From Deroplatys truncata (lineage: Eukaryota; Arthropoda; Insecta; Mantodea; Mantidae), in contig CM060990.1 of NCBI GenBank assembly GCA_030765065.1, forward strand, positions 279,647,341-279,711,340: DNA of 64,000 nt. The letters are read 5' to 3'. Below are positions 18,274-60,689 of this stretch, in pieces. The translations under genes and the position numbers were made by a program. Numbering within the stretch: the stretch's first letter is position 1; every line of letters begins with the position of its first letter. The notes beneath the pieces were generated by a model. The model made no database searches and was not told the DNA's origin. It saw only the letters and a list, made by a program, of their open reading frames with translations.

Positions 18274-18277
18274 TAAC

Positions 18278-19585: not shown

Positions 19586-19720
19586 GATTATAGAAGTCTG
19601 AAGCCCAATACCTGGAGGAAGTGTCGATTGCGTGATGTTAACCCTCCGGGTGCCAAGGGTAGAGTATGATGTGTGCGTCGAATCACTGCCTTATTATATC
19701 CTTGACGTCGTTGACTTCTT

Positions 19721-22219: not shown

Positions 22220-22225
22220 TTCATC

Positions 22226-23050: not shown

Positions 23051-23056
23051 AGGTAC

Positions 23057-23314: not shown

Positions 23315-23361
23315 ATAGGGTATATATTAATGCGAAAGTCTAATTTCAGTGTCATTTCAAG

Positions 23362-25037: not shown

Positions 25038-25525
25038 CAAAATAATAATGAAAATAAAGAGGCTTTCATTCCACAATAATGCGTGTTTTTATTTCATTGT
25101 ATATGATGTGTCAAATATGAAATTCATTATTTTAAAAACATTTTTGTGATTGCATGGTTTACATACATTTTATACATGATTAAAAATCAATAAGTGGTTT
25201 TAACTAAAAATCATAAACAAAAAAATACATGTGTATACAACAACATTATTATTTGCATTTTTACGGTTAACCCTCATATACACACACGCACACACACATA
25301 ATACATACATGAAAAAACACTCGCTCACTAGACTGCATTTTACATACATTTTATAAAATTCAAAATCAATAAATTAATAAACAGAAAAGACTTAACAATT
25401 AATAAAAGCTAAATATTTACATTATCCATATACATATATAAATACACACATACACAGAAAAGCAAATTTTTTTTAAAAAAAATTTCCACAACTAAAAATT
25501 TACAATAGTAAATACATATATACAT
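25038..25525. other. AT-rich 3' convergence region
   Basis: The plus-strand AATAAA (25053-25058) and a minus-strand AATAAA (plus TTTATT at 25088-25093) are the only signals. The rest is AT-rich with a short CACACA run and no frames. Confidence 0.5.
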
Positions 25526-28500: not shown

Positions 28501-29155
28501 TAGTTCCAATAACAAGAACCCTGACAGCGAACAGAGATTTTGAGCTTGCACCAACTTAGAAACTTGAGATGTTTTCTAGAATTTCATCGACCATAGAAGT
28601 GTATAAGGCATCAAGGTAACTTGATTGAGGACCCAGCTTTGTCTTGCTATTGAAAAAGGTGGTTTCTGCATGCTCTTTTTCAGGAGATTGTATTAGGTAG
28701 GTGATCTCGATAGATGCATTTACTTTAAAGCCTGAAGAGATTCTCGCGAGTACAGAAACCATCTCTCCCAATACAAGATGTCTGCATTCCTGCAGAAATT
28801 GACCGGGGTCAGCTATCTCTAAAGTGTTTTCTATGCGGCTATTGAAAATGTGGCCCTTGAACGCCGATTCAATAACCTTGCACTCTAGCTGTGTATGACT
28901 AACCTTTAGTTTTTTAGGTGTTGTTCCTGTATTCAGTGTTGTCACAAACGGAGTCAGCAATGGTGGTTGAGTTGTCATAATGGTTACGACCGATGCCTGA
29001 TAGCCCTGCAACTGGTGATGGAGGTGCCATTGAAGATCATTGATGGGCGAGGGGGTTAATTCCTTGACCGTGCTCCTCTTCAGCCTCGTGAGGTCTTTTG
29101 GTACCCCGGAGCAATGCATACTCAGGCTCCGGGTCCGTGACCACTATTGAAGGTT
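25526..29155 (-). pseudogene. Protein-primed-type DNA polymerase B, main body, degenerate
   Basis: Reading leftwards, one frame from 29119 to 26651 holds the N-terminal domain, exonuclease and start of the palm. It is interrupted only by TAA at 28560-28558 and TAA at 27424-27422. Visible blocks are VLFVVYADFESVLARV (exonuclease Asp/Glu), HCHICKKEFEVDDLKVRDHC with the family's Cys/His motif, FFHCLSNYDSHFLM, and the palm motif LAYLDINNLYG (about 26725). From 26650 onward several frameshifts occur, but the LYGK motif near 26290, FDTDSF near 26005 and a C-terminal HxxxG-like end survive. The DTD motif is the catalytic centre that copies the linear genome. The body would be roughly 1,150 codons. 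Exon 4 starts at 29155 after an acceptor TTGTTATAG; a frameshift lies between there and 29119. Confidence 0.88.
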
Positions 29156-29486
29156 CTATAACAATAACAAAGTGGAATTAATTGGAATGTCAGTTAAAAT
29201 AGAAATGCGAGAATACATGTTTATTTAAATCATTGAAGAAAAAGCGTAAAGTCACGTGTTAATGTTACGATAATTATTTATATAATTGTATATTTTAATA
29301 AATAAAAATGAGTGAAAAAGTTGATTGAGAAAAGTTATGCGTTAACGTTACGATAATTATTATGTAATTGTGTATTTTAATCAATAAAAGTGAGTAAAAA
29401 ATTTTATTGAGAAAAGTTATGCGTTAACGTTACGTTAATTATTTATGTAATGATGTTACTAGAATAAATGAAGTTAAAAAACTCAC

Positions 29487-31816: not shown

Positions 31817-31935
31817 TATGCAGATGAAGATGGATGCAGTCTAGAAGACAATAGCGCTGAATTGGTTTAAGCTGAATCACTTGCCTGTATCGCTAACTTA
31901 AAATGTCGCAGTGGCTTCCTTATCCAACAGCGCTT

Positions 31936-31944
31936 GTTTATATA
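31936..31944 (-). promoter_or_regulatory. TATA box for the leftward polymerase transcript
   Basis: TATATAAAC on the minus strand lies about 120 bp before the first AUG (31816). No other ATG occurs between, which supports the very short coding exon 1. A CACGTG palindrome lies further upstream near 32007. Confidence 0.5.
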
Positions 31945-31950
31945 AGGACC

Positions 31951-32162
31951 TAGAGACCCTCAGGCAATTTCAAGCGTTGGTATGGCGGGGGAGATGTTAC
32001 ACGTCACGTGATTATTGCATCCAATGACATCATCTCTTGCAGCGCATGCGCAGAGAGAAGTAGCCCTCGGGCAATTCCGGTGACGCCTGGAAGTCGGGGT
32101 GGAATGGGGTGGTGTTATATGATGCTTGTCTCGTGGGAACTCAAGGCTCTGTCTTTTCCCAC
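31951..32162. other. Unique GC-richer sequence between the promoter and the right terminal repeat
   Basis: Frames here mirror each other on the two strands. Apart from the CACGTG palindrome I see nothing definite. Confidence 0.4.
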
Positions 32163-32941
32163 AGTCAGACAAAGACAAGTCGAGCATAAAGCAACCCTCG
32201 AATTCTTTTGTTAAGCTACCAGGTGTTCGAACAATGGAAAGGGACCGGCATTGTTATAGGGTTGTGGAATGAGAAATGCCAGATGGTCTTTCTAAAGTAG
32301 TTTTGCCCCGGACAATAGAAAGGCACACAATAGAACCTCTTCCTTTGTCCTGCATCCACATTGTTCATTTTGAAAGAAGGCTTGCCCCGGACAATAGAAC
32401 TTGTTTCTCTGTTAACAGGCTCCAGGTTCGCTTTTGTCACGACCCTAATTCATCATGGCCTTTGTTCATTTTGACAGCTGAAGGGCAAGCATTGTTCTTT
32501 TGTTAAAAGCTAGTGGAATGAGTATGCCAGATGGTCTTTCTAAAGTAGCCTTGCCCCGGACAATAGAAAGGCACACAATAGAATCTCTTCCTTTGTCCTG
32601 CATCCATATTGTTCATTTTGACAGTGATGGATAGCCTCTTGGGTGGGCTCCCACAGGTGCAGAAGTGGCCGGATGTGGAATGGGTAGGAAAAACATCTCG
32701 CCTTTGTTACAGAAGCGTAAAATTTATGACCCCTTTGTTCGTTTTGACAGGTGAAGTATAACCTTAATTGCTTAACTGTCAAGCTTCCATTGTACTCAAC
32801 AAGATTTATGGCCCATAGCTGCAATTAAAACAACCAAGGCCCTGCGGGGGGAGGGGGGAAGTGGGGGAGGGGAGCGCATTTGCATATGAATAGACATTGC
32901 ATGCATATAAAGTGAGCCAGCTCTCTTATTCTCCCCCTAAT
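32163..32941 (-). repeat. Polinton right terminal inverted repeat
   Basis: It is the reverse of the left repeat. The frames over it are near-identical to those on the left (the 94-codon frame is the same in both), showing very low divergence between the two ends. Confidence 0.95.
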
Positions 32942-42684: not shown

Positions 42685-42690
42685 TCCTTA
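42685..42690 (+). repeat. Putative target-site duplication TCCTTA, left copy
   Basis: TCCTTA precedes the start of left-arm homology and occurs again at 60684-60689 just after the right arm. Six bp is the Polinton-type length; chance agreement is not excluded because the extreme ends are poorly conserved. Confidence 0.55.
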
Positions 42691-42702
42691 GTGGAATATT
42701 AT

Positions 42703-43440
42703 ATTGATTGCTGGCGCAGAAATGCGTTTATATGGAGGAGATAGGGAAAACGAGGGTAAATGATAGGCTGGGAGAGCGTTCAAGGAATAAAATGCGTTTA
42801 TATGGGAGAGATGCGGAAAACGTGGAGAGATCCTAGCTGGAGCAGCGACTGAAGTAGGGGTAGGAAATACGAGACGAGGTGCTAGGCTAGACAAAGGTTG
42901 AAGGGTAGAATATGGGTTGTATATGGGAGGTATATAGGAAGCCGAGGAGAGGTGCAAGGATAGCGGGGGTAGGAAACTAGAAAATGCATATATGGCTGAG
43001 ATATGAGATACGAGGAGAGATGCTAGCTGGAACAGCGGAGCTGAAGGAGGGAAATGCGCTTTTAATGAGATAAGCAGGGATTACGGTGAGAGATGGTAGG
43101 CTAGACGGAGGTTGAGCGGTAGAGTTGCGTTTATATGAGAGGTATGGGAAAACGAGGTGAGATACTAGGCTAGACAGAGACGAAGGGTACTCTATGTATT
43201 TTATACGCGAGAGATGGGGAAAACGTGGAGAGATGCTAGGCTGGACGGGGTTAAAGGATGGAACATGTGGTTTATATGAGAGAAATAGCAAACCGAGGAG
43301 AGCTATTAAGCAGGAGGGGATGAATGGTAGAGTATGCGTTTATATGAGAGAGACGGGAAAAACGGAGAGAGATTCTATGCTAAGAGACAGTTGAAGGAAG
43401 GGGAGATTCGCTTATATTTGAGAGGTAGGGAAAATGATGA
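42703..43440 (+). repeat. Minisatellite at the left arm end
   Basis: About a dozen units of 55-70 bp of the type TGCGTTTATATGGGAGAGAT, then GGGAAAACGAGGAGAGATGC and TAGGCTAGAC. The frames over it are artefacts of the repeat. Confidence 0.85.
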
Positions 43441-43539
43441 TAGTTTCTAGGGATGCTAGTGTTGCTGCTTGTACAATGACCAGTCATCTCCAGGTAAGCA
43501 CCATCCAGGATTCAGCAATCAAACATATTCAACGGGTTG

Positions 43540-44215
43540 TGTACAGCATAGTTGTGTTTGATTTCACAGGTAATTCAGGTAGTATCGTTGGTATTTAGGT
43601 TAATTCAGCTAGTATCACAGGAGAGCGGATTCCATGGGCTAGGTGTAGTGTAGTTCAATATGATTTCACAGCTAGTTCACGTAGTACGGTAGGTATTTAG
43701 GCTAATTCAGCCAGTATCACAGGAGGATAGATTCCATGGTTTTGGTGTGTATAGCTCCGTATGATTTCACAGGTAATTCAGGTAGTATCGTAGGTATTTA
43801 GGCTAATTCAGATAGTATCATGGGCATACAGATTCCATGGTTCGGATGTGTATAGTTCGTATGATTTCACAGCTAGTTCAGGTAGTATCGTTGAAATTTA
43901 GGGTACTCAGGATAGTATTACAGATGCTCGTGATAGTTTCAATCAGCGATTTGTATCACAGATATTTAAGATAATGTCAGGTGATTTAGGTAGTATCAAA
44001 GGTATTTGCGCCATTTTAACAGAAAATTCAGCTAGTAACGTCGATGTTTAGGATAATCCGTGTAGTATCGCAGGTGCTCGTGGTAATTTCGAGCAGCGAT
44101 TCGTAAAAGAGCAATTTAAGGTAATTTTGCATGATACGGATAGTATCACAGGTATTTAAGTCATTTTAGCAGGTAATTCGGATAGTATTCAGGTATTCAT
44201 GGTAATATACAGAGT
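43540..44215 (+). repeat. Second tandem array of the left arm
   Basis: Repeats built from TAATTCAGGTAGTATCGTAG and GGTATTTAGG motifs in composite units of about 100-130 bp. Matching inverted copies lie at 59100-59680. Confidence 0.8.
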
Positions 44216-44559
44216 AGTTTAATTCTTTATAAACATTTCTTATCCAATGTTGCAACACCTTTATATATATTTTTCTGTTGTTAACCTTTATATGTTAAAC
44301 AATTAGTGTGTGTGATGGAGAGGGTTAAACAGAGTATAGGGATACAGTGAGAATATATAGAAGTAGTATAATGTAACCCATCCGGATGGTTGAGGAAATA
44401 TTATAAGGTTTTATTTCGGTTTGTTATTTTATATGGTTACAGCTTTTATCCAAGTGTAACAGCTTTATCAGCTAATCACTGCTTCATTAGATAATGATTC
44501 TAACGGTAGACGTCTTTCCCCTTTATCTACGCCTTTAATTTTTTGCCATCGCACCTTGA

Positions 44560-47500
44560 ATATCTAATGCATACATCTTAAGTCGTAGTCCGACAAAGCG
44601 TTGGATGATTCTTCCATTAGCCTCATCTTTAAATCCTTTCAGCACCATTTGTTCTGAGTGGAGTGGCATATATGGTTAACAAGCTATCAGCTGTATCCAG
44701 ATGCTCATTAAAACGTAGCTTGTCCTGGTACACACTTGTCACCCGATGAATGAATGAATCAGTGTCAATTTACACAAGCTTCAGGTGTTCAGCTCCATAA
44801 TATGGCAAAAACAGGTCATAATGATAGTGATACATCAATGTCTTAGAGATGTCCAACACACTCATTCCAATCTATATAGGCTTCTTGAATACAATCTGTC
44901 GAGAGGCCATATGCACAGCAGCTGGATTAGCAGCATATATTGTCCTATCGATAAACGTACGCTTGGCGATCAACTTTTCTAAAGTTTCCTCGTTTGTAAC
45001 CAACCATATATCCATACGATTACGCAGACTCTCGATAGTTTTTCCAAACAAGCCATTGTAAAAGAGTTTGTAGAGGTCCTTCACCAAATCATTTGCAGCA
45101 CTTTATCATAGCCTGTTGTTAAATTACACATAAGGTGTTAACCATGGAGACTGTCGGCATTGTAGCACAGTATGGATTTTACTCAAACGTAGCCCATGAT
45201 TAGCTTGCTTCCAAACCATGTAATGTGCCACATACTTACATCGAGCTTCAAGATGGGTATCAGTTTCTTTGTAGATGACTCCTTGGAATTCGTACATTTA
45301 GGCAGGAAAGGTAGATCGTTGTATTGACCGCGAAGCTCTCGGAATACTCGATATAAACTTCCAATATCATCCACGTGGATCATCTTCTTGTTATGTTTCT
45401 AAGTTAATTTCATTAAAAGAAAGCCACTCAAATGCACCATAAGGAAGGCGTGGCATATTGCCCAACCATATTGGTTATTTGCATCCTTATAGGTGATAAA
45501 TTGGGTTTCTCTCGACGAATCATACTTATCCATGTAGATATTGTTTGCTTCCATATAACGTTGGGAAACTTGGCATAAACCTTCTCTTATACAAGATTTT
45601 ATCATGAGTAGTTGATCATTATCCAGTAGCAATTCAAGCTGAATTCCAGTATACCGCAACATTGCGTTCCAAGTAAGCCCTGGAGATGTGAAATAATGTG
45701 CGGGATCGACTTTATCAGCTTTCAGGGTCTGATCTCTAAATGTATCAAGTACATCAGCTAGAAGAACATCTGAGGTGAAGTAAGGTCACTGTACTCACCC
45801 AGGTTTCTGACATTAAATACTTCCCATACATTTCTAGCATGATTGTAGTCAGCATCACCAATGTCTTCTTCATTTAACATATTGAAGAAGGAATCCTTAG
45901 AAAGCACGCAGTTTTCGTTCAAAACATCCCATGACGTGACGTAATCATTAGGAAATACTCCTTTACGAGTCAAAAATTCAACCTGTCTTCTCCGAAGTAC
46001 TTCAGCGTTTCAGGATATGATGTTAGAAATTTCACCAGCTAATCCAAGCTTCTATTCAGGAACCGAAGGCTATCCATATACCGAAGCTTTATATCTCCTA
46101 CATACTTGGAAAATGATATATAGCTTTCTTGTTCATGCTAGGAATTACCTCCACACGTTCACTCGTACATCCCAGTTCCTTAACAATGAGATGTGAGCCA
46201 TTCTCACTGAGGTTGTGCATGAAGACGGGGATATATTTAGGTGTTTTGAAGGACAAATTACATTCATTATGTAGAATTACACGATGTTCTTCACTGATGT
46301 GATCCTGGTCGCGAACGTTGTAGTTATTTTCAGAAAGGTTTTACCATACAATTAGCATACTGTAGAGTAGTCGAAATACTTCTGCTGTGGATCTGTAGGT
46401 TTCAGTGGCATGGCAGATTTGTATTCATTATCAATTTTCTTTTCAAGGAAGTCAGATATTCCATAAACTTCTGAGCAGCATCACAACCACGATATACGTA
46501 AGGCTGCTTAGAAATATCAGTTTCGACGTGTTCAACGATTTCACGTAAACACAGCTCATTGGTATGTGCTCTTGATAAGGTGTTGTATAGGAAGTTTCGT
46601 GATTGAGTACACACGTATGACACGTAGTGAGAATACTCTCAAAGTTTCACACATGACATAAGGTACTTTCAAAATCCTCTCAACACTTTTAAACTGTACG
46701 ATTGATTATCCTTGGCATGCATATCTAACCTTGCAGCATCATGTTTATTACAGATGGCTGCATTTTCCTCTAGTTTTTCCAGTCCACTTCGTCCACGCTG
46801 ATCATCAAAATGTGTAACGCAGCAATTACGGGTGTAAAAAGTTCTATATGTTTAGTTTTCTGAAGTCGAACGAGGTTCTCAAAATTTTTGATATATACGT
46901 AGTGATGTTTTCCACTACTGTCACTCAATAGTAACAGGTCGCGGTCCTTAGGTAGTTCAGTCTCAGCAACCTTTATAGGATACACTTCATGCTTCTCGTT
47001 CAGCCTGAATACGTTGATAGACATGCTGTTAAGCTTCTTAAACTTAGATATTTGAGAAAGTGGTGTAGGGTAAGAAACACAGCTGACGTCGTGCATATCT
47101 TGAAGTTGCTCGTATTTGCTGACGCGCTGTGCATTCTGCTCAACATATTTGGCTGTTACAGAATACATGAAGCATTTCTCGTCGGTATAATTCTGGATGT
47201 TTATGCAGGCATTTCTTGTTTCAACAGATGGCGGTGGTGGCATATCAGCTACTTCCTCGTAACGGATTGTACTTGTTGATATAATGTCAAAATCGTTGCA
47301 CAGCAAGCAGGGCCCAATTCCTATTCTTAAGCTACCGATTCCTCCATTTCAGTAATCAATTTCTTGAATTTCGTTTCCAACATAGAGTCCAGATCCGTTT
47401 CTAGAAAAACAGGTTGATTACGTGTTTTGTCACAGGTATCTCCGATACTGTTAACAAATCGACACTCAGCCAGCAGATTCATTTTCACACTGTTGTGAGT

Positions 47501-47950
47501 ATCAAGCTCTTTATGTACAGCCAAGATTATTCCTTGTTTTGCCTCACACAGATACATTTTCAGAGCCTTAGACGATTCGTATAATATAAATAACAATTTC
47601 AAGCGTTCATCGAATGAAGTTTCATAATATTTCATATCAAAACCCCCATTATACACCATAAGTTATGGTTAGTAGGTTCTAATCTGCTTTTCTTCTCAGG
47701 TGTGTGTATTTTAAAAAATCCTCATGATGTTGACCCTTAAAACTGTTATGAAGGTCAGGCTACAATGTTTACGTGTGAAGAGTCGCTTACAGGTATTCTC
47801 GTGTCTTCTCTTATCATATCCTCGTGGAAATTTCTTTCCGCATTTACCGCAAGCGTATACAGTAACGCTCGGAATAATATTCTTATATGCAGAGTTATTG
47901 ACCTTTACTCATGATGTAACAACGTATTAATCCTTGTTCAAGGAGATGTA
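44560..47950 (-). pseudogene. Polymerase B, left-arm copy, with N-terminal zinc fingers
   Basis: Reading leftwards: zinc-finger part near 47860-47720 (CGKCGKKFPRGYDKRRHENTC and a following KHC pair); MNLLAECRFVNSIGDTCDKT (47490); PPPPSVETRNACINIQNYTD and EKCFMYSVTAKYVEQNAQRV (47240-47120), the usual opening of Polinton-type polymerases; GVFPNDYVTSWDVL (45965); palm motif ITYKDANNQYG (about 45480); LFYNGLFGKTIE (45060); IDTDSFIH (about 44765). Many stops and frameshifts exist, but the three palm motifs are preserved. It is of a different lineage from the polymerase of the 14-33 kb element, judging by little local similarity. No clear start codon precedes the fingers. Confidence 0.8.
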
Positions 47951-48129
47951 CACCTGTTCACCTTGATAACCCTTTGAAAAGCTGTTTATTTTCGGAGAGA
48001 AGACGATGTTGACACCTCTTGACCAATTAGCAGAATGAAATCCAGTGTCTGAAGTCACCCTATTTATAGAGGGAGCATGGACCTTTTAGATCAATTATAT
48101 TCTGAATCTTAATAATAATATGGTGATTA

Positions 48130-48425
48130 AGTATTTAAACTCTTATATTTTAATACGTGTTTATACAGGTATTCGGGCGTGTCCGGAGATCTTCGTTCAT
48201 GCTCACGTGTTTAGAGAGGTGTTCAGTGGTGTTTATGTGTGATTGTGCCTATTCGTAGGTCTTCGTATATCTTCGTGTGTTTGGAGGTAGTGTTAGAAGT
48301 ATTGGGCGGATATATCTATGTGTTCGGATGTGTTCGTAGGTTTTCATGTGTGTTCACATGTTTAGAGAGGTGTTCGGAGGTGTTTATGTCTGTTTATGTA
48401 CGATTGTATGTGGAGGAGGCACGAA
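48130..48425 (+). repeat. Tandem array between polymerase and small ORF, left arm
   Basis: Repeated TTCGTGTGTTTGGAGGTGTT- and GTTTATGTGTGATTG-like units. The 124-codon frame over it follows the repeat. The inverted counterpart lies at 51640-52060. Confidence 0.7.
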
Positions 48426-48926
48426 CCTCTGGGATAACATTACATTTCAGATGCGATGCTGTAACGCTTTTATCACTTTCCGGTTCGACGTTGACACCCA
48501 TATTTTATGTATTTAGATATTTTAAAAAGATAATTTATATATTAAACATCATTGTTACTTATTCTCTGTGTTCTCGTTTTATATACTTTCAAAACAATCG
48601 TGCGGTGATTTGAGCAATTAAAGCTGATGAGGTGACTAAAACTCTGATATTTCACTAACATATCAATGTCTTTTAATCATATAACGTGATCGCTGATCAA
48701 ACATTTAATTCAACTCTAAATCATGACATAAAAACGGGTTTGTTGTATACCACTCATTTTAATGCTTTGCGCGTTTTAACCTCAGCCATATGGCATCACT
48801 TGCGGAGACAGGTTGTCTAGCTCTATCAGACACACATAAACTCGCCTAATTACTACCCGTATATGTTCGCTTTGCACGTATTAACTTCTGCCATATGAGG
48901 TCACACCGAGAGACAGGATATCTATA

Positions 48927-49178
48927 ATGTCACACTTAGAGAATAGAATTTATGGTTCTATCACGCACGTTGAAACTCATCTCGTAACTACCTCTCACAC
49001 CAAACATAGACAATTATTCTCACACGCTCATTTCGACAATGTTTCCATTCAGCGTCTACGATCACTACCACCACCATCACCCATTGCACCAAAGTTAACA
49101 CCATCTCTTTTAGCACAATGCTTTAGATGTGGACGCTTTAGAGCTAACGTAGAAGCGTTTCTCTTCTTATTTAATTAA
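48927..49178 (+). CDS. Small conserved ORF, left-arm copy
   Basis: An 83-residue frame starting MSHLENRIYGSITHVETHLV and ending VEAFLFLFN. It is conserved in the right arm (51147-50854), with the length difference in the Pro-rich middle being whole codons, and with the same stop. A third partial copy with the same C-terminal frame lies at 50427-50566. Shared motifs are RIYGSxTHVETHLVTT, VSIQRL, a Pro/Ser-rich stretch, IAPKLTPSLL and FLxLFN. I recognise no family. Coding status is inferred from this frame conservation. Confidence 0.5.
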   Translation: MSHLENRIYGSITHVETHLVTTSHTKHRQLFSHAHFDNVSIQRLRSLPPPSPIAPKLTPSLLAQCFRCGRFRANVEAFLFLFN

Positions 49179-49335
49179 ATTCATGTATATACTGTATTAA
49201 TTCATGTTATCATTCCTTTTTCAATTCCTCCTTTCCATCTACCATTCATTCTGCAAAGAATCAGTATACAATATGACATTTCTATATGCCTAATACTCAG
49301 TTATCACAGAAAGCCATTACATTTGACTGCAATTA

Positions 49336-50163
49336 TAACCCTTCAATGCGGCGCGTCATTGAGTAGTTGTTACAAGTTGACCTGGAGCGTATTGTTCGAA
49401 TCCAGTGGTATGGATACAACTTTATCTTCGAATAACCTCTAATCTAAATTAGATAAAGACAATGAATAAACTTTATTACGTTTATATCATTAGCCAGTTC
49501 CTTCCGAATGCATATTTGGTTACCTGTCGTCCTGGCTTCGATCCTTAATTTGTAAAACTCAACTATCTCAGAACCTAGGAGAGCTAAAGGAGCAAACTAA
49601 AGCATGATTGATAGCTCCTATGATGTACAATTAATACCGTATAAAATTGTCAGTCAGTTATCCTTGGTTCGAATCCCGACCCTTCAATGACTTTCTTAAT
49701 TTATAAATTAAATTCGTACTTATAAATGTTGATAGTTTATGAACTAATTTAGATTAATAGAGACAATAAAATGTAAACAGCTGTGTGAGACGGGTCTTCG
49801 AGCCTTGAATTGTTAGAATTTCCGCGCGTAACTATGGTCTGTCTTCATTGCGGCATGTAGCCTCCTGCGGCCAGTAGGATATATCGCTTACATTGATGTC
49901 GTAAACTGCAAATAGCTATGTTTAACATGCTAAATTAATATTATAAATAATTTGTTCCTAGTGTTCCGGGTTCGAATACTGATTCAATAAAATTTACTTA
50001 TAAATTTAATAGCTTAAAACTAATTTATATAAAGATGCCAGAGTTTCAAGTCTAGAAATATCGTTATCATGACAAACAACTGCTTTACAGTACTCAGATA
50101 GAATCCCGAAGGAGGGATATGTATCCTAAAAACTATGTATCTTAGCTGGTTCAAATAAACCTT
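49336..50163 (+). repeat. Central spacer with repeated TTCGAATC boxes
   Basis: The non-inverted centre of the palindrome. Three units of about 270-300 bp carry GTTCGAATCC-like boxes near 49400, 49667 and 49970 and a following AATTTAGATTAAxAxAGACAAT-like stretch. The boxes resemble Pol III B boxes and those of the array at 15.2-16.2 kb. Confidence 0.5.
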
Positions 50164-51001
50164 AAATGGCAGATGCTGATGCAAGGAACTAAATTACCGA
50201 AGTAAATTGATTAAATGCATTCTCTGGTTCGGTTCTACCAGCTTAACACTGAGAAAATTACTTTTCTCATGATTGTAGTTAAATGTAATGGTTTTCTCTA
50301 ATAACTGAGTATTAAGCGTATTGGTATGTCACATTGTATACTGATTCTTTGGAGAATGAAGGGTAGGTTGGAAGGAAGAATTGAAAAAGGAATGAAAACA
50401 TGATATAATATAGTATATGCATGAATTTAATTAAATAATGGGAGAAAACCTTCTATCTTACCTTTAAAGTGCCTACTTGTAAAGTATTGTGGTAATAAAG
50501 ATGGTGTTAACTTTGGTGCAATGGGTGGTGCTGGTGGACACTGAATGGAAGCATCTGTCGGAATGAGCGTGTAAGAAAGTTTAAATGGCAGATGCTGATG
50601 CATGAAACTAAATTAACGAAATAAATTTATTTAAACCATTACCTTTCGATTCTAGGAGCTTAAAATCTGCGTAACACTGGAAAACCTACTTTGCTTATGA
50701 TTGTAGTCAAATGTAATGATGTTCTGTGATAACTGAGTATTAAGCGTATAGGAATGTCATATTGTATGCTGATTCTTTGGAGAATGAAGGATAGATGGGA
50801 AGGAAAATTGGAAAAGGAATGAAAACATGAATTAATACACAATATACATAAATTTAATTAAATAAGGGGAGAAAAGCTTCTACGTTACCTTTAAAGCGTC
50901 TACTTCTAAAATGTTGTGGTAATAGAGATGGTGTTAACTTTGGTGCAATAGTAGATGGTGATGGTGGTGGTGATTGTAGACGCTGAATGGAAACATTGTC
51001 G
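50164..51001 (-). repeat. 419-bp tandem duplication in the right arm
   Basis: AAATGGCAGATGCTGATGCA starts at 50164 and again at 50583, and the following about 400 bp are similar. The duplication copies the 3' half of the small ORF and is absent from the left arm. Confidence 0.85.
50427..50566 (-). pseudogene. Small conserved ORF, third partial copy
   Basis: It keeps the C-terminal frame (IAPKLTPSLLPQYFTSRHFK, then GFLPLFN and stop) but has an extra base upstream and lacks the N-terminal half. It arose through the local tandem duplication. Its AAAGGTAAGA sequence would also serve as a strong splice donor. Confidence 0.45.
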
Positions 51002-51147
51002 AAATCCTCATGTGGGAATACTTGTCTCTGTTTGGTGTGACAGGTAGTTACGAGATGAGTTTCAACGTGTGTGTTAGAACCATAAATCCTGTTCTCTAAG
51101 TGCGACGTCATAGATATCCTGTCTCTGGGTGTGACGTCATATGGCAA
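50854..51147 (-). CDS. Small conserved ORF, right-arm copy
   Basis: A 97-codon frame; the shared part begins at the internal MTSHLENRIYGSNTHVETHL. It aligns with the left-arm copy throughout, with one 3-base indel visible in the Pro-rich middle and an identical ending. Function unknown. It points towards the palindrome centre, opposite to the polymerase gene of the same arm. Confidence 0.5.
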   Translation of the reverse strand: MPYDVTPRDRISMTSHLENRIYGSNTHVETHLVTTCHTKQRQVFPHEDFDNVSIQRLQSPPPSPSTIAPKLTPSLLPQHFRSRRFKGNVEAFLPLFN

Positions 51148-51639
51148 AGGTTAATACGTGCAGAGCGAACATATACGGGTAGTAATGAGGAGAGCTTTTG
51201 CGTGTCTGACAGAGTTAGACAACCTGTCTCCGGAAGTGATATCATATGGCGGAGGTTAATACGCGCAAAGCATTAAAAGAGTGGTATACAACAAACCCGT
51301 TTTATGTCACGGTTTAGAGCTGAATTAAATGTTTGATCAGCGATTACCTTATATCAATAAATGACATTGATACGTTTGTGAAATACCAGAGCTTTAGCCA
51401 CCCCATCAGCATTTAATTGCTCAAATTATCGCACGATTGTTTTAAAAGTATATAAAACCAGAAAGCAGATAATTAGGAACAATGATGTTTAATATAAAAA
51501 TTATATTTTTAAAATCTCTAAATACATAATATATGGCTGTCAACGTCCAACCGGAAAGTGATACAAGCATTTCAGTATCGGATCTGAAATGTAATGTTAT
51601 CCGAGAGATTCGTGCCTGCTCCATAAATAGGGGTTCCTT

Positions 51640-52060
51640 CACACACACAAACAATCGCACATAAACAGAAATAAACATCTCCGAAAAGCTCTCTAAACAC
51701 GCGAAAATGCACGAAGAACTACGAACATCTCCTAACACATAGATACACACGTACAACGCTTCTAACATTTCCTCCAAGCACAGGTGCCTACATAAAGACG
51801 TATGAACACCTCGAATACATACATACACACGAACATTTCCTCCAAGCACACGAACCTGCAAAAAGACCTACGAGCACCTCCGAAAACATAGCTACATCCG
51901 CACAAAAGTTCTAACACTTTCTCCAAACACACGAAGCTATACGAAGACTTGCGAATACGCACAATCACACATAAACACCACCCAACACCTCTCTAAACAC
52001 GTGAGCATACACGAAGACCTACCGACACGTCCGAACATCCGTGTGAACACGTATTAAAAT
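51640..52060 (-). repeat. Tandem array of the right arm
   Basis: CACGAA- and ACACACGTAC-type units (inverted with respect to 48130-48425), expanded here. Long minus-strand frames over it are repeat artefacts. Confidence 0.7.
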
Positions 52061-52283
52061 ATAAGAGTTTAGACGCTTAATCACCGTTTTATGATTAAAA
52101 TTCAGTATATAATTGATCTAAAAGGTCCGTGCCCCCTATATAAATAAGGTGACTTTGGACACCGGATTTCATTCTTCTAATTGGTCTTGAGTTGCCAACA
52201 TCTTGTTCTCCAAGAAAATAATCAGCTTTCCAAAGAGGTATCAACGTGAAGAGGTCTACATTTCCCTGAACAAGGATTATTAC

Positions 52284-52291
52284 GTTATTAC
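52284..52291 (+). repeat. hAT target-site duplication, left copy
   Basis: GTTATTAC stands before the element and TTTATTAC after it (55374-55381), one mismatch in 8. The uninterrupted left arm shows the empty site at about 47911-47930. Confidence 0.8.
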
Positions 52292-55200
52292 CACGGTTAG
52301 GATTTTTAGGTGCAAATTTTAGATGCAAAAAGGAAGAAAAAGGTGCTCAAATAAGGTGAAAAAAGGGACGATAAGGCGCTGGCTTATTTAAGGGGATGCA
52401 CAACTGAAATTACTATTTTCTAAACTATTCATTCAATTGGATGAAATTTTAACCACATCTCAAGCTTCTTTAGATATAATTGTTTTCTGAATTTCAATCG
52501 AAAATCTTAATTAGTTTTCAAGTTATTAATTTTCAAAATATAAAATAATGGTTATATGCAAAATGCAACAAATAATGCATTTTTCAAAAACAAAATCTTA
52601 TGTTGCTTCTACGTCAACGAACTAGAAATCTGTCATAGACTTTTCTTCTACCATACTTAGATTAAGAGAAAAAAGTTTTCCAGTTGTGTATTTGCATTTT
52701 TCCGCTTTTTTGTATATAATACTATCTTAAAAAATTAGTAGTGCAAAAGTTATTCATCACACAGAAGAATTATTTGACAGTTTTATTTATTTGGGTTTTT
52801 GAAATAACCATAAAATACGTCAATATGAATGGATGAAACTACATCGTATGGAATATTTTGAATATGCAGAAATTCTGAAAATGAGAAATGCCTTAAAATG
52901 AGGTTTTAGAAAGATAAACAGCTACCAACCAAATGCGCAAGGGTATTTAAAAAGTCTCGTAGTGATCCTGAAGCGTTCGTTAGGTCAAAAATAAAAGTGG
53001 ATTCTGAAACTACAAGCAATGGAGAATTTTTGGGAACATAAGCTTTTTTTTTATTTTTTGAGATTTTGGGTGAATTTCAGTTGTGCATTCCCTTAACTAA
53101 TTCAACGATTTTTCTTTCCTCTATTATAATTTATTGAACTACAAACAAGTACATGAAATTATCACCCATCAAAGGAAGGAAAAGACATGAAGCTGTTGTG
53201 CTTCAAGATATTAAGCATCTCCACATTTTTAAAAATAAGTCTGTTTTTATTAGGAGATATAATGTCTTTGTAGATGCTAAAGCTTCTTTCAATATCCACA
53301 GAAACCAGTGGGGCAAAACCTTGTATTCACTTGGAATGACAACTTTACAGATGTGGCGCATTCTCAATGTCTGGATTCTTCTGAAGACTAGATTCAAGTT
53401 TGTCTTTGGCAAACCCATCTAACTGTTCCCTCACGGAAGTAAAATATCCCATTATTTTTCCTTTTCGAGACCTTGTTCTTCCAATCGTTTAATACCTGCA
53501 GGCAGCTACTTGTAAAAATGGACACAATATAGTTCTGTCTGCAAATTATGTATTTTCTCCGGGAACAGAAGTTGCTGTGCCTTGGAAATTGCAGCTGCGT
53601 CGGATGGATCCAAAGTAAGCACAAGCTCTTTAATCTTGTCAACATTCTCACACAACATACCAGCACACTCAATCCAAGATCCCCAGCGAGTAATGACTGG
53701 GAAATTAGGAGGGGCAGGCCAGTGACTTCACTGTAGTAAACAAAATGGCTAGGAGCTTTCAGCAGAACCTTCTTTAGGGCAGAGATGAATTAATTTGCGA
53801 TGTCGTATTCGTTTCTTATGGATTCACAAATCCTGTGAAGGGCATGAGCCAAGCATGTCACATGCTGCAAGTTAAGAAATAAATGTTTCAATTGGCTAAC
53901 AGCTGAAACCATGTATGGAGCCTAGTCCTTAACCACAAGAAGAGGTTTTTTAAACTCGATACAAGTAGGCAGGAGTTTTGGGCAGAAGTCCATAACGGAT
54001 TGCATTACTCTACTGGCATTGGCTTTCTGCAGCTCGTACGTTTTTAACAACATGGGCTTAACTTGCTAAGGGAAAAAACTAAAATGTTCAAAACATTTCG
54101 TTCCATTGAGTCTATGGTTTCATCTACAATGATTCTCATATCGCAATCAGACACTTCCTCCTTGATTCTTTGTATGGTTTCTTGGTAAACAGGCTCCACG
54201 TAGCTTTTTCTTAAAGTACTCTCATCGGGCATTGACATCTTTGTGTATTTTTCAAGAAATCCCCTGAAGGCTGGATGGTTCACCTTATTGAATGGAATTC
54301 CTTCTTGTGTAAGAGCTGCACACAAATCAATGTTTAATACCTTCAAATTTTGGCTTTTTGAAGAACTCTATTGAAACGCATTTCGTAATAGGGGTTGCCG
54401 TGATTTGTTTGCTTGAAGAGTCTTGTTTATTTGATGCTTAGAGCTGGAAATGTGTGGTTTTATGCGATGTCGCTGGTGTTTTTCAACTAACAAATTTCCT
54501 GAATCACAAATAGTGCATCGTATAACAGTTCCATCAGTGTCTATGAAATCTTGTTTGAATTCCTCAGCCAGAACAATAAATTGAGCACTGGACACCTTTG
54601 ACATTGTAAAATCTAGTATTAGTACACTCGTTTGGAGAGCTACCATTAGTTCACTTGTTAACACAATGCGACTGTCACACAACTCACTCTTGTGCCCATT
54701 AGCTGTCCACATTCTTTTATAACACCGCGACAATTACCAGAATGTCCTAATTCATGCCGGAACTTCAGTCTCAGCGATTAGTAGTAGTTTCGAGCAGAAC
54801 TCAGTGTTAATAATTCTCGAAACTGCACGGGTGAGGTTACTGCCGTCTCTGCGTGCCCAGCCTTCGCCTCCACGCAAACAGATGACGTCTCTCACAGTAA
54901 CAAACTCACATTCACCAACGGCAGGCTACTCATTCTGGTGGGATATCACTAATTGTCAGTTGTATTATTGTGAGTTACTTTATAGCGGTAAAGCGAGGGA
55001 AAGAGGTTTTCGTCGAACATAGAATTATTTTCCATCGTTGTGGGTGTGCTTTCAATTCCCGCGCGGCGTTTACTGAAAGAGATAGGCTAACTATTCGCAC
55101 GTACACATCAAGCTGAGACGTTAATTGAAAGTTAAAGAATAAATCGGAATGAAACTTAAAAGAAAAAAGGGGGAAAATGCGATTATGGGCATGGTGTGGG

Positions 55201-55373
55201 GAAAATGGGATAAAGGTGCCAAAAAGGGGTAAAGGTTCCAAAAAAGTGAACAAGGTGCGAGAAAAAGGTGCCACTTATCGCACCTAGAAACAAAATTTCA
55301 CACTGTGATATCTTTCCGCACAGCTTTAAATTACCCCAAGAAAAAAGGTGCACACCTAAAAGTCCTAACCCTG
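52292..55373 (-). mobile_element. hAT transposon inserted in the right arm
   Basis: Terminal repeats CACGGTTAGGATTTTTAGGT on the left and, reversed, CAGGGTTAGGACTTTTAGGT on the right. Length 3,082 bp with 8-bp duplications. It contains a degenerate minus-strand transposase at 54733-53400. Removing it and one duplication restores collinearity with the left arm. Confidence 0.88.
53400..54733 (-). pseudogene. hAT-family transposase (CGGBP1/BED-like), degenerate
   Basis: Reading leftwards: a BED-type zinc finger (54580-54450: VIRCTICDSGNLLV, then HQRHRIKPHISSSKH); ALTQEGIPFNKVNHPAFRGF and FLEKYTKMSMPDESTLRKSY (54330-54210); IIVDETIDSMERNVLNILV with the first catalytic Asp (54130); and later PVITRWGSWIECAGMLCENV (about 53695) with LLFPEKIHNLQTELYCVHF. 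This order matches arthropod hAT-like proteins related to CGGBP1. Frameshifts separate the parts, and the C-terminal dimerisation domain is not recognisable. Confidence 0.75.
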
Positions 55374-55381
55374 TTTATTAC
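55374..55381 (+). repeat. hAT target-site duplication, right copy
   Basis: TTTATTAC, one mismatch to 52284-52291. Confidence 0.8.
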
Positions 55382-58300
55382 ATAAAGAGTAAGCTTGAAT
55401 AACTCTGCATAGAAGAATATAATTCCGAGCGTTACTGGATACGCTTGCGGTAAATGCGCAAAGAAATTTCTACGAGGTTATGATAAGAGAAGACACGGAT
55501 GGACTATAAGGGAGTCTTCAAATGTAAACATTGTAGCGTGATCTTCAATGACAGTTATATGTGTCAACGTCATGAAGATTTGTGTGAAATACACATACCT
55601 GAGAAGAAAAGCAGATTGGTACCTACTAAACAAAACCTATTACATACAATGGAGGACTGTAAATGTGAAATAATATGAACTTCATTCTATGAATGCTTGA
55701 AACTGTATTTTATACGATGCGAATCGTCTAAGCATCTGAAAATGTATCTGCAGGAGGCAAAACAACGGATAATCCAGACTGCATAAAGAGCTTGGTAATC
55801 ACAAGATTGTGAAAATTAATCTTCTGGCTAAGTGTGGATTTGTTAACGGTATCGGAGAAACCTGTGACAAAACATTTAAAACACGGAATCAACCTGTTTT
55901 TCTAGAAACGGATCTGGACCCTATATCGGAAACGAAATTCAAGAAATTGGTTACTGAAACGGAGGAATAGCACCTTAATGGTAGCAACTGAGCCCTGCTT
56001 GCTGTGAAAGGAGTTAGACTTCGTATCAACAAGTACAATCCGTTACGAGAAAGTAGCTACATGCCACCGCCGCCACCTGTTGAAGCAAGAAAAGCCTGCA
56101 TAAACGTCCAGAACTATACCGATGAGAAATGTTTCATGTATATTCTGTATTAGCCAAATATGTTGATAAGGATGCACAGCGAGTCAGTAAATACAAGCAA
56201 CTTCAAGATAAGTACGACTTCAGCTGTGTTGCTTAAGCTAATTCTCTTTCTCAAATATATAAGTTTGAGAAGCACAACAGGGCGTCTATCAACGTTTTCG
56301 GGGTGAATGAGAAGCATGGCGTGTATCCTATAAATGTTGCTGAGACTGAATTACCTAAACACCGCGACCTGTTGCTATTGAGTGACAGTAGTGGAAAACA
56401 TCACTACGTAAATATCAAGAATTTTGAGAAATTAGTTCTACATCAGAAAACTAAACATAAAGAACGTGGTTACACCTGAAAGCGCTGCTTTACACATTTT
56501 GATGACCACTGTGGACGAAGTGGGCTACAAGAACATACAGCCATGTGTAACGAACATGATGTTGCAAGGGTAGTTATGTCTGCAAGGAGAAATCAATTGT
56601 ACAGTTTAAAAATGTTGAGGGGATGTTGAAAGTACCTAATGTAATGTATGAAACTTTGAGAGTATTTTCACTGCGTGTCATACGTGTATACCCAATCATG
56701 AAACTTCCTGTACAACACCTTATCAAGAGCACACACCAATGGTCTTATGTGTTTACGTGAAACCGTTGAACACGTCGAAACTGGTCTTCCTAAGGAGTAT
56801 ATGTATATCGTGGTTATGATGCTGCTCAGAAGTTTATGGAATATCTGACATTCCTTGCGAAGAAGATTGATAATATATACAAATCTGCCATGACACTGAA
56901 ACTTACAGAACCACAGCAGAAGTATTTCGACTCCTACGGTATGCTAATTGTATGGTAAAGCCTTTCTGAAAAGAACTACAACGTACGCGACCACGATCAC
57001 ATCAGTGAAGAACTTCATGGAATTCTACACAATGAATGTAATTTGTCCTTCAAAACACCTAAATATATCCCCACCTTCATGCACAACCTCAGTGGGTATG
57101 ACTCACATTTCATTTTTAAGAAACTGGGATGTACGAGTGAACGTGTGGAGGTAATTCCTAGCATGAAGAAGAAAGCTATATATAATTTTCCAAGGATGTA
57201 GAAGATATAAAGCTTCGGTATGTGGATAGCCTTCTGTTCCTGATTACCAACTTGGAGAAGCCGGTGAAAAATCTAACATCATATCTTGAAACGCTGAAGT
57301 ACTTGGGAGAAAACAAGTTGAAGTTGGCGACTCGTGAAGGAGTATTTCCCTATGATTACGTCACGTCCTGGGATGTTTTGAACGAAACCCGCGTGCTTCC
57401 TAAGGATTCCTTCTACAATAGGTTAAATGAAGAAGAAATTAGTGATGCTGACTACAATCATGCTAGAAATGTTTAATGTGAGAAGCCTGGGTGAGTACAG
57501 AGACCTGTACTTACCCACAGATGTTCTTCTTCTAGCTGATGTCTTTGAGACATTTAGACATCAGACCCTGAAAAGTGGTGAAGTCGATACCGCACATTAT
57601 TTCACCTCTCCAGGACTTACCTGGAAAACAAATTGATGCCACATCTTGGACCTCGAAAGAAGTATGTGGTACATCACATGGTTTTGAAGGTAGCTCTTAA
57701 TCATGGTTACGTTTGAGTAAAATACATCGTGTGCTATAATGCCGACAGTCTCAGTGGTTAAAGCCTTATGTGGAATTTAACAACAGGCTACGATAACGGG
57801 CTGCAAATTATTTCGAGAGGGATCTCTACAAACCCTTTTACAATGGCATGTTTAAAAAAAACTATAGAGAATATGCGTAATCGTATGGATATATGTTTAG
57901 TTACAAACGAGGAGACGCTAGAAAAGTTGATCGATAAGTCTAGGTTTATCAATAGGACAATATATGCTACTAATCCAGCTGCAGTGTATATGACCTCTCG
58001 ACGGATTGTATTCAATAAGCCTATATACATTGGAATGAATGTGCTGGACATCTCTAAGACATTAATGTATCACTACATTATGACGTGTTGTTCCATATTA
58101 TGGAGCTAAAAAGCTGAAGCTTATGTATATAGACACTGATTCATTCATTCATCAGGTGACAACTGAAGATGTGTACCAGGGCAAGCTACGTTTTATTGAG
58201 CATCAGGATACAACCGATTACCCTATTAACCATATATGCCACTGCACTCAGAACAAAAAGTGTTGGTAAGACCTAAAGATGTAACTAATGGCAAAATCAT

Positions 58301-58480
58301 CCAACACTTTGTCTGACTACAACCTAAGATGTATGCATTAGATATTCAAGGATCGAAGATAAAAAAATTAAATGCATAAAACGTAGTGCTATTAAGCAGT
58401 ACATTACATTTGACTACTATCTGGACTGTCTTAAAGCCCGAGAAATAATAAAAACACATATGAATCTGATCCTGTGACGA
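55382..58480 (+). pseudogene. Polymerase B, right-arm copy, palm segment deleted
   Basis: It reads rightwards with fingers near 55440-55600 (CGKCAKKFLRGYDKRRH and FKCKHCSVIFNDSYMCQRHE), ARKACINVQNYTDEKCFMY (56090), HHYVNIKNFEKL (56400), GVFPYDYVTSWDVLNETRVL (57340), YFTSPGLTWKTN (57600), NRMDICLVTNEETLEKLIDK (57870) and IDTDSFIHQV (58120). Between PGLTW (57620) and the segment at 57655, about 400 bp present in the left arm are missing, including the palm motif with Asp-Ala-Asn-Asn. Its lesions otherwise differ from those of the left arm, so the two copies decayed separately. Confidence 0.8.
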
Positions 58481-59099
58481 GAGCATAATGATAGCACCGG
58501 GCAAGTGAATAAACTCACATTGGCTCATTTTGATGATAAAAGGATGATTGCCGAAGATGGAATAACTACATATGCATATGCACATTATTGTATTACAAAC
58601 ATTTCTTAAAAGAATGTAACATGGATCTCAAGATGAATATTTTCTCAGCGAGTCTACAATCTTAAAAAAATGGAACTTTACCTATGTGCCGTGTATATAC
58701 CTAACAGGCACCTGGTGAAGACAGACGAAGAAGAAGATATAAGGGGAGGCGTTAACCCTGCCATTAGGAGCAAATACTAGTGGTAGTCTCAAGCCCAGAT
58801 AAGGGGAAGAGATGTCTACCCTTACAATCCTTATCTAATGAAGCAATCATTAACTGATACAGCTGCTACACTTGGATAAAGACTGTAACCATAAAAAACA
58901 ATAAAGCCAACTAAAACATTATAATATCTGCACAACCATGCTAATGGGTTAGTTTATAATGCTTCTAGATACCCTCTCTGTAACCTTATACGCTGTTTAA
59001 CCCTCTCTGTCCCGCACACTAACTGTTTAACATATAAACGTTAATAAGATTTAGAAAGTATATAAAAGTGCTGTAACATTGGATAAAATGTTTATAAAG

Positions 59100-60660
59100 A
59101 GTTGAATTACTCTATATATTACCATAAATACCTGTGATACTATCTGAATTACCTGTTAAAATGACCTAAATACCTGTGATACTATCCGATCATGCAAAAT
59201 TGCCTTATATAACTCCTTTATGAATCGTTGCTCGAAATTACCACGAACACCTGCGATACTACACGGATTACCCTAAATATCGACGATACCTGCTGAATTA
59301 CCTGTTAAAATGGCTCAAATACCTTTGATACTACCTAAATCACCTGAAATTACCTTAAGTAGCTGTGATACAAATCGCTGATTGAAATTATCACGAGCAT
59401 CTGTGATACTAGCCTGATTAACTTAAATACCAACGATACTACCTGAACTAGTTGCGAAATCATACGGAACTATACACTTCCGAACCATGGAATCTTTCTG
59501 CCCATGATACTATCTGAATTACCCTAAATACCTTCGACACTACCTGAACTAGTTGTGAAATTATAGGAAACTATACCACACCCCGCCCATGGAATCCTCC
59601 CTCCTGTGATACTAGCTGAATTAAACTAAATACCAACGATACTACCTGAGTTATCTGTGAAATCATACACAATTATGCTGCACCCAGCCCGTGGAATATG
59701 CTCGTCTGCTGAGTGCTGAATGGTGCTAACCTGGAGAAGACTGGTCATTGTACAAACAGTAACACTAGCGTCCTTAGAACCTATCATCGTTTTCCCTACC
59801 TCTCAAATATAAGCGAATCTCCCCTTCCTTCAACTCTCTCCGTTTTCCCCGTCTCTCCCATAAAAAGGGATGCTCTATCATTCATCCTCTCCTAGCCTAA
59901 TAACCCTCGTCGGTTTGCTAACTATCTCATATAAAACACATGTTTCACCCTTTAACCTCGTTTAGCCTATCATCTCTCCAAGTTTTCTCTATCTCTCCCG
60001 TATAAAAGACATAGAGTATCCTTCGTCTTTGTCCAGCCAAGTATCTCACCTCGTTTTCCCATACCTCTCATATAAACGCAACGCTCCCCCTCAACCTCCT
60101 TCTAGCCTAGCATCTCTCCCCGTAATCTCTACCTATCTCATTAAAAGCGCATTTCCCCTCCTTCAGCTCCCCTGTTCCAGCTTGCATCCCTCCTTGTATC
60201 CCCTATCTCAGCCGCATGTATGCCTTTTCTAGTCTCCTATCCCCAGTAGCCCAGCACCTCTCCTCAGTTTCCTATATCTCCCATATAAAACCTGTATTCT
60301 ACCTTTCAAGCCCTGTGTAGCCTAGCACCTTTCCTTTCGTAATTCCTACCTCTCTTATATAAAGCCCATTCCCCATCTTAAGCCCCTGTCTAGCCTAGCA
60401 TCTCTCCCAGTTTTCCATATGTTTCCCATATATGCGCATACTCTACTCCTTAACTTCTGTCTAGCCTAGCACCTCGCCTCGTATTCCTTACCTCTATTAT
60501 ATAAAGAGCATTCCCCTCCTTCAGTCGCTGCTTTACCTAGGATCTCTGCTCGTTTTCCCTATCTCTCCCATATAAACGCATTTTCCTCCTTGAACGCTCT
60601 CGCAACCTATCATCCACCCTCATTTTTTCTATCTGTCCCATATAAACGCATTTATGTGCC
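59100..60660 (-). repeat. Tandem arrays at the right arm end
   Basis: 59100-59680 mirrors the TAATTCAGGTAGTATC array, and 59790-60660 mirrors the TGCGTTTATATGG minisatellite of the left arm. Copy number and spacing differ between the arms. Confidence 0.85.
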
Positions 60661-60683
60661 AGCACCGCTATAATTGTCTACCG

Positions 60684-60689
60684 TCCTTA
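60684..60689 (+). repeat. Putative target-site duplication TCCTTA, right copy
   Basis: Exact match to 42685-42690, directly after the end of right-arm homology. Confidence 0.55.

What the first reader, a model, noticed from the sequence alone, without database searches (positions are those of the whole stretch)
42691..60683. An 18-kb palindromic element built from two outward-facing polymerase B genes
The arms share minisatellite, second array, polymerase, third array and small ORF in mirrored order around a 0.9-kb spacer, and TCCTTA flanks the outside. No integrase, ATPase, protease or capsid genes are seen. Ordinary Polintons have much shorter terminal repeats and a single polymerase. This could be an undescribed class of self-replicating element with arm-length inverted repeats, or a head-to-head dimer formed by hairpin or template-switch replication of a linear polymerase-primed element.
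Basis: partly seen in the sequence, partly recalled or inferred. Interest (0 to 1): 0.9.

Follow-up and report, generated by a model that had tools for sequence, protein, structure and literature searches.

The report
Palindromic Polinton derivative, polymerase gene doubled
The window holds an old copy of a mobile DNA element whose two halves are mirror images, each with its own DNA polymerase gene; many younger mirror-image copies sit elsewhere in the same genome, so the palindrome is an inherited form of a Polinton relative and not an assembly error.

Summary
42691-60683 is an inverted duplication: arms about 85% identical, 0.93-kb spacer, TCCTTA on both flanks, a hAT-like insertion in the right arm only. 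Each arm carries a decayed, outward-facing PolB. The arms differ about equally at all codon positions and in noncoding DNA, so they were near-identical when inserted.

The genome (4.29 Gb) holds many relatives. Five palindromes were read in halves: arms 98.3-99.5% identical. In 14 of 17 copies the two arms are each other's closest match. Ends read AGTAG..., with 6-bp duplications like those of the complete Polinton at 14099-32941. One centre recurs at 40 of 40 scored places, and 10 of 10 tested had PolB on both sides. Between copies PolB shows third-position bias, so it was under selection. Single-PolB relatives (8-9 kb; terminal repeats 37 bp, 925 bp, about 2 kb) with exact 6-bp duplications also exist.

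Best reading: a PolB-only Polinton derivative, mobilised in trans by full Polintons, whose ends are copied onto each other during replication; the extreme is a heritable palindrome. Trans-mobilisation and the copying mechanism are inferred. My paper searches showed no palindromic Polinton.

The parts
42685..42690 (.). left target-site duplication TCCTTA
   Evidence: exact 6-mer on both flanks; relatives carry exact 6-bp duplications
42691..49338 (-). left arm (PolB on minus strand, reading outward)
   Evidence: inverted match to right arm
42709..43388 (.). outer minisatellite of left arm (about 70-bp unit), the terminal repeat zone
43462..43557 (-). short major-capsid-gene fragment, left arm
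   Evidence: blastn 77.6% to 19168-19265 in the capsid gene of the Polinton; no match in 7 young half-loci tested
43535..44187 (.). second array (about 101-bp unit), left arm
   Evidence: TRF and direct repeats
44532..48000 (-). decayed PolB gene, left arm
   Evidence: blastn to the 1268-codon PolB frame of a relative, 79.4%; tblastn to the Polinton PolB
47916..49338 (.). inner array zone, left arm
   Evidence: inverted match to 50695-52291
49339..50268 (.). central spacer; 49332-49534 is collinear with the PolB-start-side end of a single-PolB relative (75% over 205 bp)
50154..51005 (.). tandem duplication private to the right arm (50154-50564 and 50573-51005)
   Evidence: 79.6% direct match
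50269..60683 (+). right arm (PolB on plus strand, reading outward), including the insert
52292..55374 (-). hAT-like transposon inserted in right arm only
   Evidence: absent from left arm; flanks GTTATTAC/TTTATTAC; weak DUF659 match E 0.0016, below Pfam cut-off
55375..58378 (+). decayed PolB gene, right arm (lacks 396 bp kept in left arm)
59118..59697 (.). second array, right arm
   Evidence: TRF
59666..59751 (+). short major-capsid-gene fragment, right arm
   Evidence: 79.5% to 19179-19266
60040..60664 (.). outer minisatellite of right arm
60684..60689 (.). right target-site duplication TCCTTA
14099..32941 (+). Polinton/adintovirus-type provirus in the same window: candidate type of helper, not part of the palindrome
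   Evidence: terminal repeats 98% complementary over 771 bp, duplication GACATG, capsid, PLA2-like, ATPase, integrase and PolB domains

Best explanation
This is an old, inactive copy of a PolB-only Polinton derivative. In most resolved copies (20 of 22 places) the element is a palindrome, whole or partial; four whole ones whose two ends were located measure about 14-19 kb. Two mirrored arms each end outside in a Polinton-type terminus (AGTAG...) and carry one outward-facing PolB, around a short unique spacer. Shown: many copies, a shared centre, 6-bp duplications, arms more alike within a copy than between copies in 14 of 17 cases, selection on PolB between copies, and single-PolB relatives with short or intermediate terminal repeats. 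Inferred: PolB replicates the linear element from protein-primed ends; displaced strands fold back because their ends are complementary, and one end is copied onto the other for a variable length. When copying runs past PolB, a palindrome results, and in a palindrome every cycle can renew one arm from the other. Integration uses an integrase supplied in trans by full Polintons such as the one at 14099-32941.
For: Copies: a PolB probe gives 3352 first-look candidates, 40 scored, 84-100% identical. Palindromes: five copies read in halves, main arm matches 6.3-9.4 kb at 98.3-99.5%; C3 left half against four other left halves, main pieces 82-93%. Centre: 40 of 40 scored places of 3028 candidates match at 86-100%, 39 of 40 over at least 800 of 821 bp; 10 of 10 centres taken from the 39 others have PolB in opposite orientation on both sides. 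Spacer of 455-540 bp, 87-93% alike in three copies. Arm pairs are sisters in 7 of 7 copies; within-copy identity exceeds that to any other arm in 14 of 17 copies. Selection: C3 arms differ 6/6/7 at codon positions 1/2/3 and window arms 98/86/106 (p 0.95, 0.35), but C3 against C1a 61/55/218 (p 5e-34). Exact duplications: GCGGAC, GATGGA, TACATC, CAGAGT, ATTCTT, AACCCC. Ends resemble that of the Polinton: 16-21 of 32 identities, reached by at most 84 of 20000 shuffles. Terminal repeats of 37 bp, 925 bp, about 2 kb and 6-9 kb. Integrase donors: 125 scored copies of 11743 candidates.
Against: Not every relative is a palindrome: a partner arm at 10-11.5 kb was found for 2 of 20 places, two places are single-PolB elements, and of the 40 places, 18 remain unresolved. 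In 3 of 17 copies an arm is closer to another copy than to its partner, and in several others the margin is under 0.5%. The centres of the window copy and of C1b do not match the common centre, so more than one palindrome lineage, or repeated formation, is likely. A terminus-like motif at the centre, expected from fold-back at an end, scored above threshold in 1 of 5 centres only. Selection on PolB could partly have acted in an unseen full-length relative. Trans-mobilisation rests on similar ends only: without the first five bases the weakest case has 11 of 27 identities, reached by 1278 of 20000 shuffles. No full Polinton carrying this PolB was met, but none could be searched for well.
Confidence: 0.75

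Rival explanations
1. Each palindrome is a separate dead-end by-product (like a defective interfering genome) of single-PolB elements, made afresh by fold-back and then integrated.
For: Single-PolB elements exist with exact duplications; window and C1b centres differ from the common centre; terminal repeats range from 37 bp to several kb.
Against: One centre with the same junctions recurs at 40 of 40 scored places at 86-100% identity, and 10 of 10 tested have both arms: it was inherited, not remade each time.
Confidence: 0.12
2. Palindromes are heritable, but arms are kept alike after insertion by arm-to-arm gene conversion in the chromosome, as proposed for palindromes of mammalian Y chromosomes (recalled).
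For: High arm identity within copies; inverted arms a few kb apart could convert.
Against: The window copy has diverged by about 13% fairly evenly along the arm (8.8-16.3% per 500 bp) with no converted patch seen; the 16 other copies lie between 97.8 and 100% in PolB, as age alone could give.
Confidence: 0.15
3. Two ordinary Polintons inserted next to each other in opposite orientation.
For: Two PolB genes in opposite orientation.
Against: One duplication flanks the whole, codon positions diverge neutrally between arms, and the same arrangement with the same centre recurs genome-wide.
Confidence: 0.01
4. Assembly fold-back artefact.
For: Large inverted repeats are a known assembly hazard.
Against: 13% arm divergence, one-arm hAT insertion and private indels here, and many similar loci elsewhere.
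Confidence: 0.01

Closest known systems
Polintons / Mavericks (polintoviruses)
   Same: Family-B polymerase of the DNA_pol_B_2 type, AGTAG-type termini like the full element in this window, 6-bp duplications, terminal inverted repeats
   Different: No integrase, ATPase or complete capsid gene found; terminal repeats extend over the whole arm; two PolB copies facing outward
Full Polinton at 14099-32941 in this window (adintovirus-type gene set)
   Same: Similar 32-bp terminus and 6-bp duplication; homologous PolB (29-44% amino-acid identity in pieces)
   Different: 18.8 kb with about 0.8-kb terminal repeats, one PolB, virus-like gene set
Palindromic defective or recombinant adenovirus genomes (e.g. 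SYREC of type 12; recalled, search gave no paper)
   Same: Mirrored genome with identical ends from a protein-primed linear virus
   Different: Those are by-products of infection in culture; here the palindrome is inherited in many germline copies and keeps a selected polymerase
Foldback elements (recalled)
   Same: Very long inverted repeats with internal tandem arrays
   Different: PolB in the arms; ends and duplication here are Polinton-like
Teratorn (PMC6431247, passages and one section seen)
   Different: Herpesvirus-piggyBac fusion, 41-182 kb, unrelated enzymes

Membership tests
Polinton/Maverick | family-B DNA polymerase of the protein-primed type | tested here: met
   PF03175 E 6e-10 in a piece of a young copy; motifs DANNQYG and YMDTDS in five of five arms looked at; protein priming itself not testable
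Polinton/Maverick | retroviral-type integrase | tested here: not met
   no match at E 1e-3 to the integrase of the Polinton in 16 loci; all frames of 200 codons or more in ten half-loci lie in PolB
Polinton/Maverick | capsid, ATPase, protease genes | tested here: not met
   a capsid-gene fragment of about 96 bp per arm in the window copy; no match to capsid or ATPase in 16 other loci. The protease frame of the reference Polinton is itself unconfirmed (no Pfam match)
Polinton/Maverick | 6-bp target-site duplication | tested here: met
   exact in 6 of 8 relatives whose two ends were sought, 5 of 6 bases in one, right end not found in one; window TCCTTA, off by one base on the left
Polinton/Maverick | terminal inverted repeats of roughly 0.1-1 kb (recalled) | tested here: not met
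   arm-length, 6.3-9.4 kb matches in five palindromes; single-PolB relatives have 37 bp, 925 bp and about 2 kb
Adintovirus (recalled definition) | capsid plus integrase plus PolB | tested here: not met
   met by the element at 14099-32941, not by the palindrome
Foldback element | long inverted repeats made of tandem arrays, other transposase or none (recalled) | tested here: not met
   arms are partly arrays but carry PolB and Polinton-type ends
Self-sufficient transposon | encodes its own integration enzyme | tested here: not met
   a very divergent or very small enzyme is not excluded

The most novel reading that the evidence does not exclude
A heritable palindromic replicon: a PolB-only satellite of Polintons that keeps itself a near-perfect palindrome because each replication cycle copies one arm from the other through a folded-back end, so terminal repeats can grow from 37 bp to the whole arm and both polymerase copies stay alike and functional.
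Probability: 0.45. Interest if true: 0.85.

Novelty: new variant of a known kind. Interest (0 to 1): 0.75.

Why it matters
Long palindromes are usually read as unstable accidents (recalled). Here a virus-derived element appears to have made the palindrome its heritable form, doubled its only gene, and spread. It gives a natural record, copy by copy, of how terminal repeats of protein-primed replicons may expand and be homogenised, a question otherwise approached through laboratory virus mutants. It also suggests a satellite relationship in which an element brings its own polymerase and borrows integration from full Polintons in the same genome.

Tried and rejected
Relatives outside the genome: no confirmed match in viral contigs with a PolB piece of the palindrome, of the Polinton or a degenerate motif; none in phage records; no protein relative for a 128-aa piece (20 candidates, none at E 0.001). 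Pfam gives no significant match to the decayed window pieces of PolB. A first terminal-similarity test used wrong start points for two copies and was redone. I first expected the partner arm near 10.7 kb everywhere; 2 of 20 showed that forms differ, which led to the short palindromes and single-PolB copies. The capsid fragment looked at first like proof of descent from a full Polinton in line; since 7 young half-loci lack it and it is closer at DNA level than PolB is, capture by recombination is as likely. A stop in many capsid frames may lie before the start codon; not pursued. Literature: searches were search listings (one search returned none); passages were seen in PMC6431247 (section 10 whole), PMC7805220, PMC9863843, PMC12721341. 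No palindromic Polinton was seen in these, but subscription papers and Repbase are not held.
Full report
What is there. The window segment 42691-60683 is an inverted duplication. Matches run from 42709/60664 inward to 49338/50269, at 75-85% in blastn pieces, around a 930-bp spacer. The order in each arm, from outside in, is: outer minisatellite, second array, PolB (C-terminal side first), inner array. TCCTTA stands on both flanks. The right arm alone has a hAT-like insertion at 52292-55374 with a near-exact 8-bp flank whose single-copy form is in the left arm, and each arm has private indels. An assembly fold-back would not make these.

The arms were near-identical at insertion. In the PolB region they differ at 98 of 754, 86 of 753 and 106 of 753 first, second and third codon positions (p 0.35), and the inner noncoding part differs as much (13.0% against 12.8%). 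Of 31 gaps between the arms there, 25 are not multiples of three. This is decay after selection ended, not two genes evolving under use.

A full Polinton lies beside it. At 14099-32941 the window has an element with terminal repeats 98% complementary over 771 bp, the duplication GACATG, and matches to double-jelly-roll capsid (PF21738), phospholipase-like (PF08398), A32-type ATPase (PF04665, just above cut-off), integrase (PF00665) and PolB (PF03175). Its capsid frame is split in this copy. PolB pieces of the palindrome match this PolB in both arms. Each arm also holds a fragment of about 96 bp of capsid gene at 77.6 and 79.5% DNA identity.

The family in the genome. Searching the window's own genome (4,289,915,091 bases, 818 contigs) with a 539-base PolB piece gave 3352 first-look candidates, of which 40 were scored, at 84-100%. 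Twelve of the 40 are the two arms of six palindromes, the window's included. The five others were read in halves: main arm-to-arm matches 7943 bp at 98.7%, 8256 at 98.4%, 7458 at 99.4%, 9350 at 99.5%, 6314 at 98.3%; C3's left half matches the other four left halves at 82-93% in its main pieces, though PolB alone can be up to 99% alike between copies. Eight more of the 40 places are paired wholly or in part: three by fetched pieces of a partner PolB at a distance or a full mirrored stretch, two by partner pieces nearer by, one with a partial second arm (C5:151168656), two by a matching centre next to them. Two are single-PolB elements, and 18 remain unresolved. For eight of those I read three short stretches inward and found no partner PolB; one of the eight (C16:187850970) has an inverted piece of inner arm and one (C777:125278) an element end close by.

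Ends. Copies begin with AGTAG followed by related sequence. Exact 6-bp duplications were found for three palindromes (GCGGAC, GATGGA, TACATC) and three shorter relatives (CAGAGT, ATTCTT, AACCCC). One palindrome has 5 of 6 bases equal (AACATT/AACGTT); for one the right end was not found. The 32-bp termini of C3, C8, C1b, C1a and C14 share 21, 21, 18, 19 and 16 positions with that of the Polinton (1, 0, 17, 3 and 84 of 20000 shuffles reach this). Without the first five bases the shuffle counts are 16, 16, 339, 132 and 1278. Of 99 window 32-mers starting AGTAG, three reach 16 or more, one being the Polinton itself.

The centre is inherited. A probe of arm end, spacer and arm end (821 bp) gave 40 scored places out of 3028 candidates, 86-100% identical, 39 of 40 over at least 800 bp (one is the probe's own place). 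For ten of the other 39 I fetched 0.8 kb on each side about 4.5-5.3 kb away: 10 of 10 had PolB on both sides in opposite orientation. In three copies the spacer is 455-540 bp and 87-93% alike. So one palindrome, once formed, has multiplied as a palindrome. The centres of the window copy and of C1b do not match it.

Arms evolve in concert. In a tree of a 1.5-kb PolB piece the two arms are sisters in 7 of 7 paired copies. Over 17 copies, within-copy identity exceeds the best match to any other arm in 14, in several by less than 0.5%; the three exceptions have arms 97.8-98.6% alike, as expected for somewhat older insertions in a young radiation.

PolB was under selection. Against the C3 left arm, eight other copies differ more at third positions: 61/55/218, 35/18/57, 38/28/76, 86/50/238, 38/23/92, 18/16/49, 95/52/270, 93/67/256 (six of the eight tested, p 3e-5 to 2e-35). 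C1a, C14 and C8 share the common centre (C1a in rearranged form), so selection acted at least partly within the palindromic lineage. Open frames of 1263-1268 codons were seen in 4 of 15 arms listed.

Single-PolB relatives. C16:571929841-571938200 (8,360 bp) has terminal repeats of 925 bp at 99.6%; C16:553431094-553440226 (9,133 bp) only 37 bp at 92%. C5:151165620-151173648 (8,029 bp) has one PolB region of nearly full length and terminal repeats of about 2 kb (1409 bp at 97.5% and 483 bp at 95.9%, with an unmatched stretch between). The PolB-start-side end of the 37-bp form is collinear, at about 75-79% in short pieces, with sequence at or near the centre of the window copy and of the palindromes with the common centre; the 925-bp form is not. 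In one young centre (C8, L024) a terminus-like motif faces inward at 995 (22 of 32 positions), and I read a mirrored one near 1641; in the four other centres the scan found none at that place. If real, this is what a strand end folding back on an inner copy of itself and being extended would leave. The step is inferred.

How it most likely works. Recalled knowledge of protein-primed replicons (adenovirus, Polintons): synthesis starts at each end and displaces a strand, whose complementary ends anneal. If an annealed end is extended along the other end, terminal repeats grow and become identical. The observed lengths, 37 bp, 925 bp, about 2 kb and 6-9 kb, with 92-99.6% identity between the ends, fit. 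A palindrome is the extreme. Since no integrase was found in it, integration probably uses that of full Polintons, of which 125 integrase copies (91-94% identical besides the window's own) were scored out of 11743 candidates and 130 capsid copies out of 11598.

Limits. Counts of candidates are not copy numbers. Reads were not available. The probe favours copies like the window's, that palindromes like C3. No full Polinton with this PolB type was met or well searched for.

Novelty. By gene and ends this is Polinton-derived, but it fails the membership tests for integrase, capsid and terminal-repeat length. In ten searches of the library I saw no palindromic Polinton (listed in Tried and rejected); subscription papers and repeat databases were not searched.

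Noticed in passing
14099-32941: Polinton/adintovirus-type provirus with 98% terminal repeats and GACATG duplication; 125 integrase copies were scored in the genome, most of them without stops.
   Followed up: partly
18372-19690: Capsid frame of this Polinton copy is split into two frames; many of the 130 scored genomic copies read as one longer frame.
   Followed up: no
30352-31589: Dense minisatellite with nested periods of 35, 71, 164 and 180 bp between PolB and the right terminal repeat of the Polinton.
   Followed up: no
35138-37014: Inverted repeats around frames at 35526-36276 that look to me like a Tc1/mariner-type transposase (recalled; no Pfam match for the one frame scanned).
   Followed up: no
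52292-55374: hAT-like insertion with ends CA(C/G)GGTTAGGA and an imperfect 8-bp duplication, DUF659 match below cut-off.
   Followed up: partly
43462-43557 and 59666-59751: Capsid-gene fragment in both arms, nearer to the Polinton at DNA level than PolB is; possible capture by recombination between the two element types.
   Followed up: partly
L024:995-1641: A terminus-like motif faces inward at the edge of the central spacer of one young palindrome, with a mirrored reading on the other side, so the centre resembles a 647-bp mini-element.
   Followed up: partly
11457-11635 and 40034-40210: Short inverted matches between the far flanks of the Polinton, apparently pieces of another repeat.
   Followed up: no
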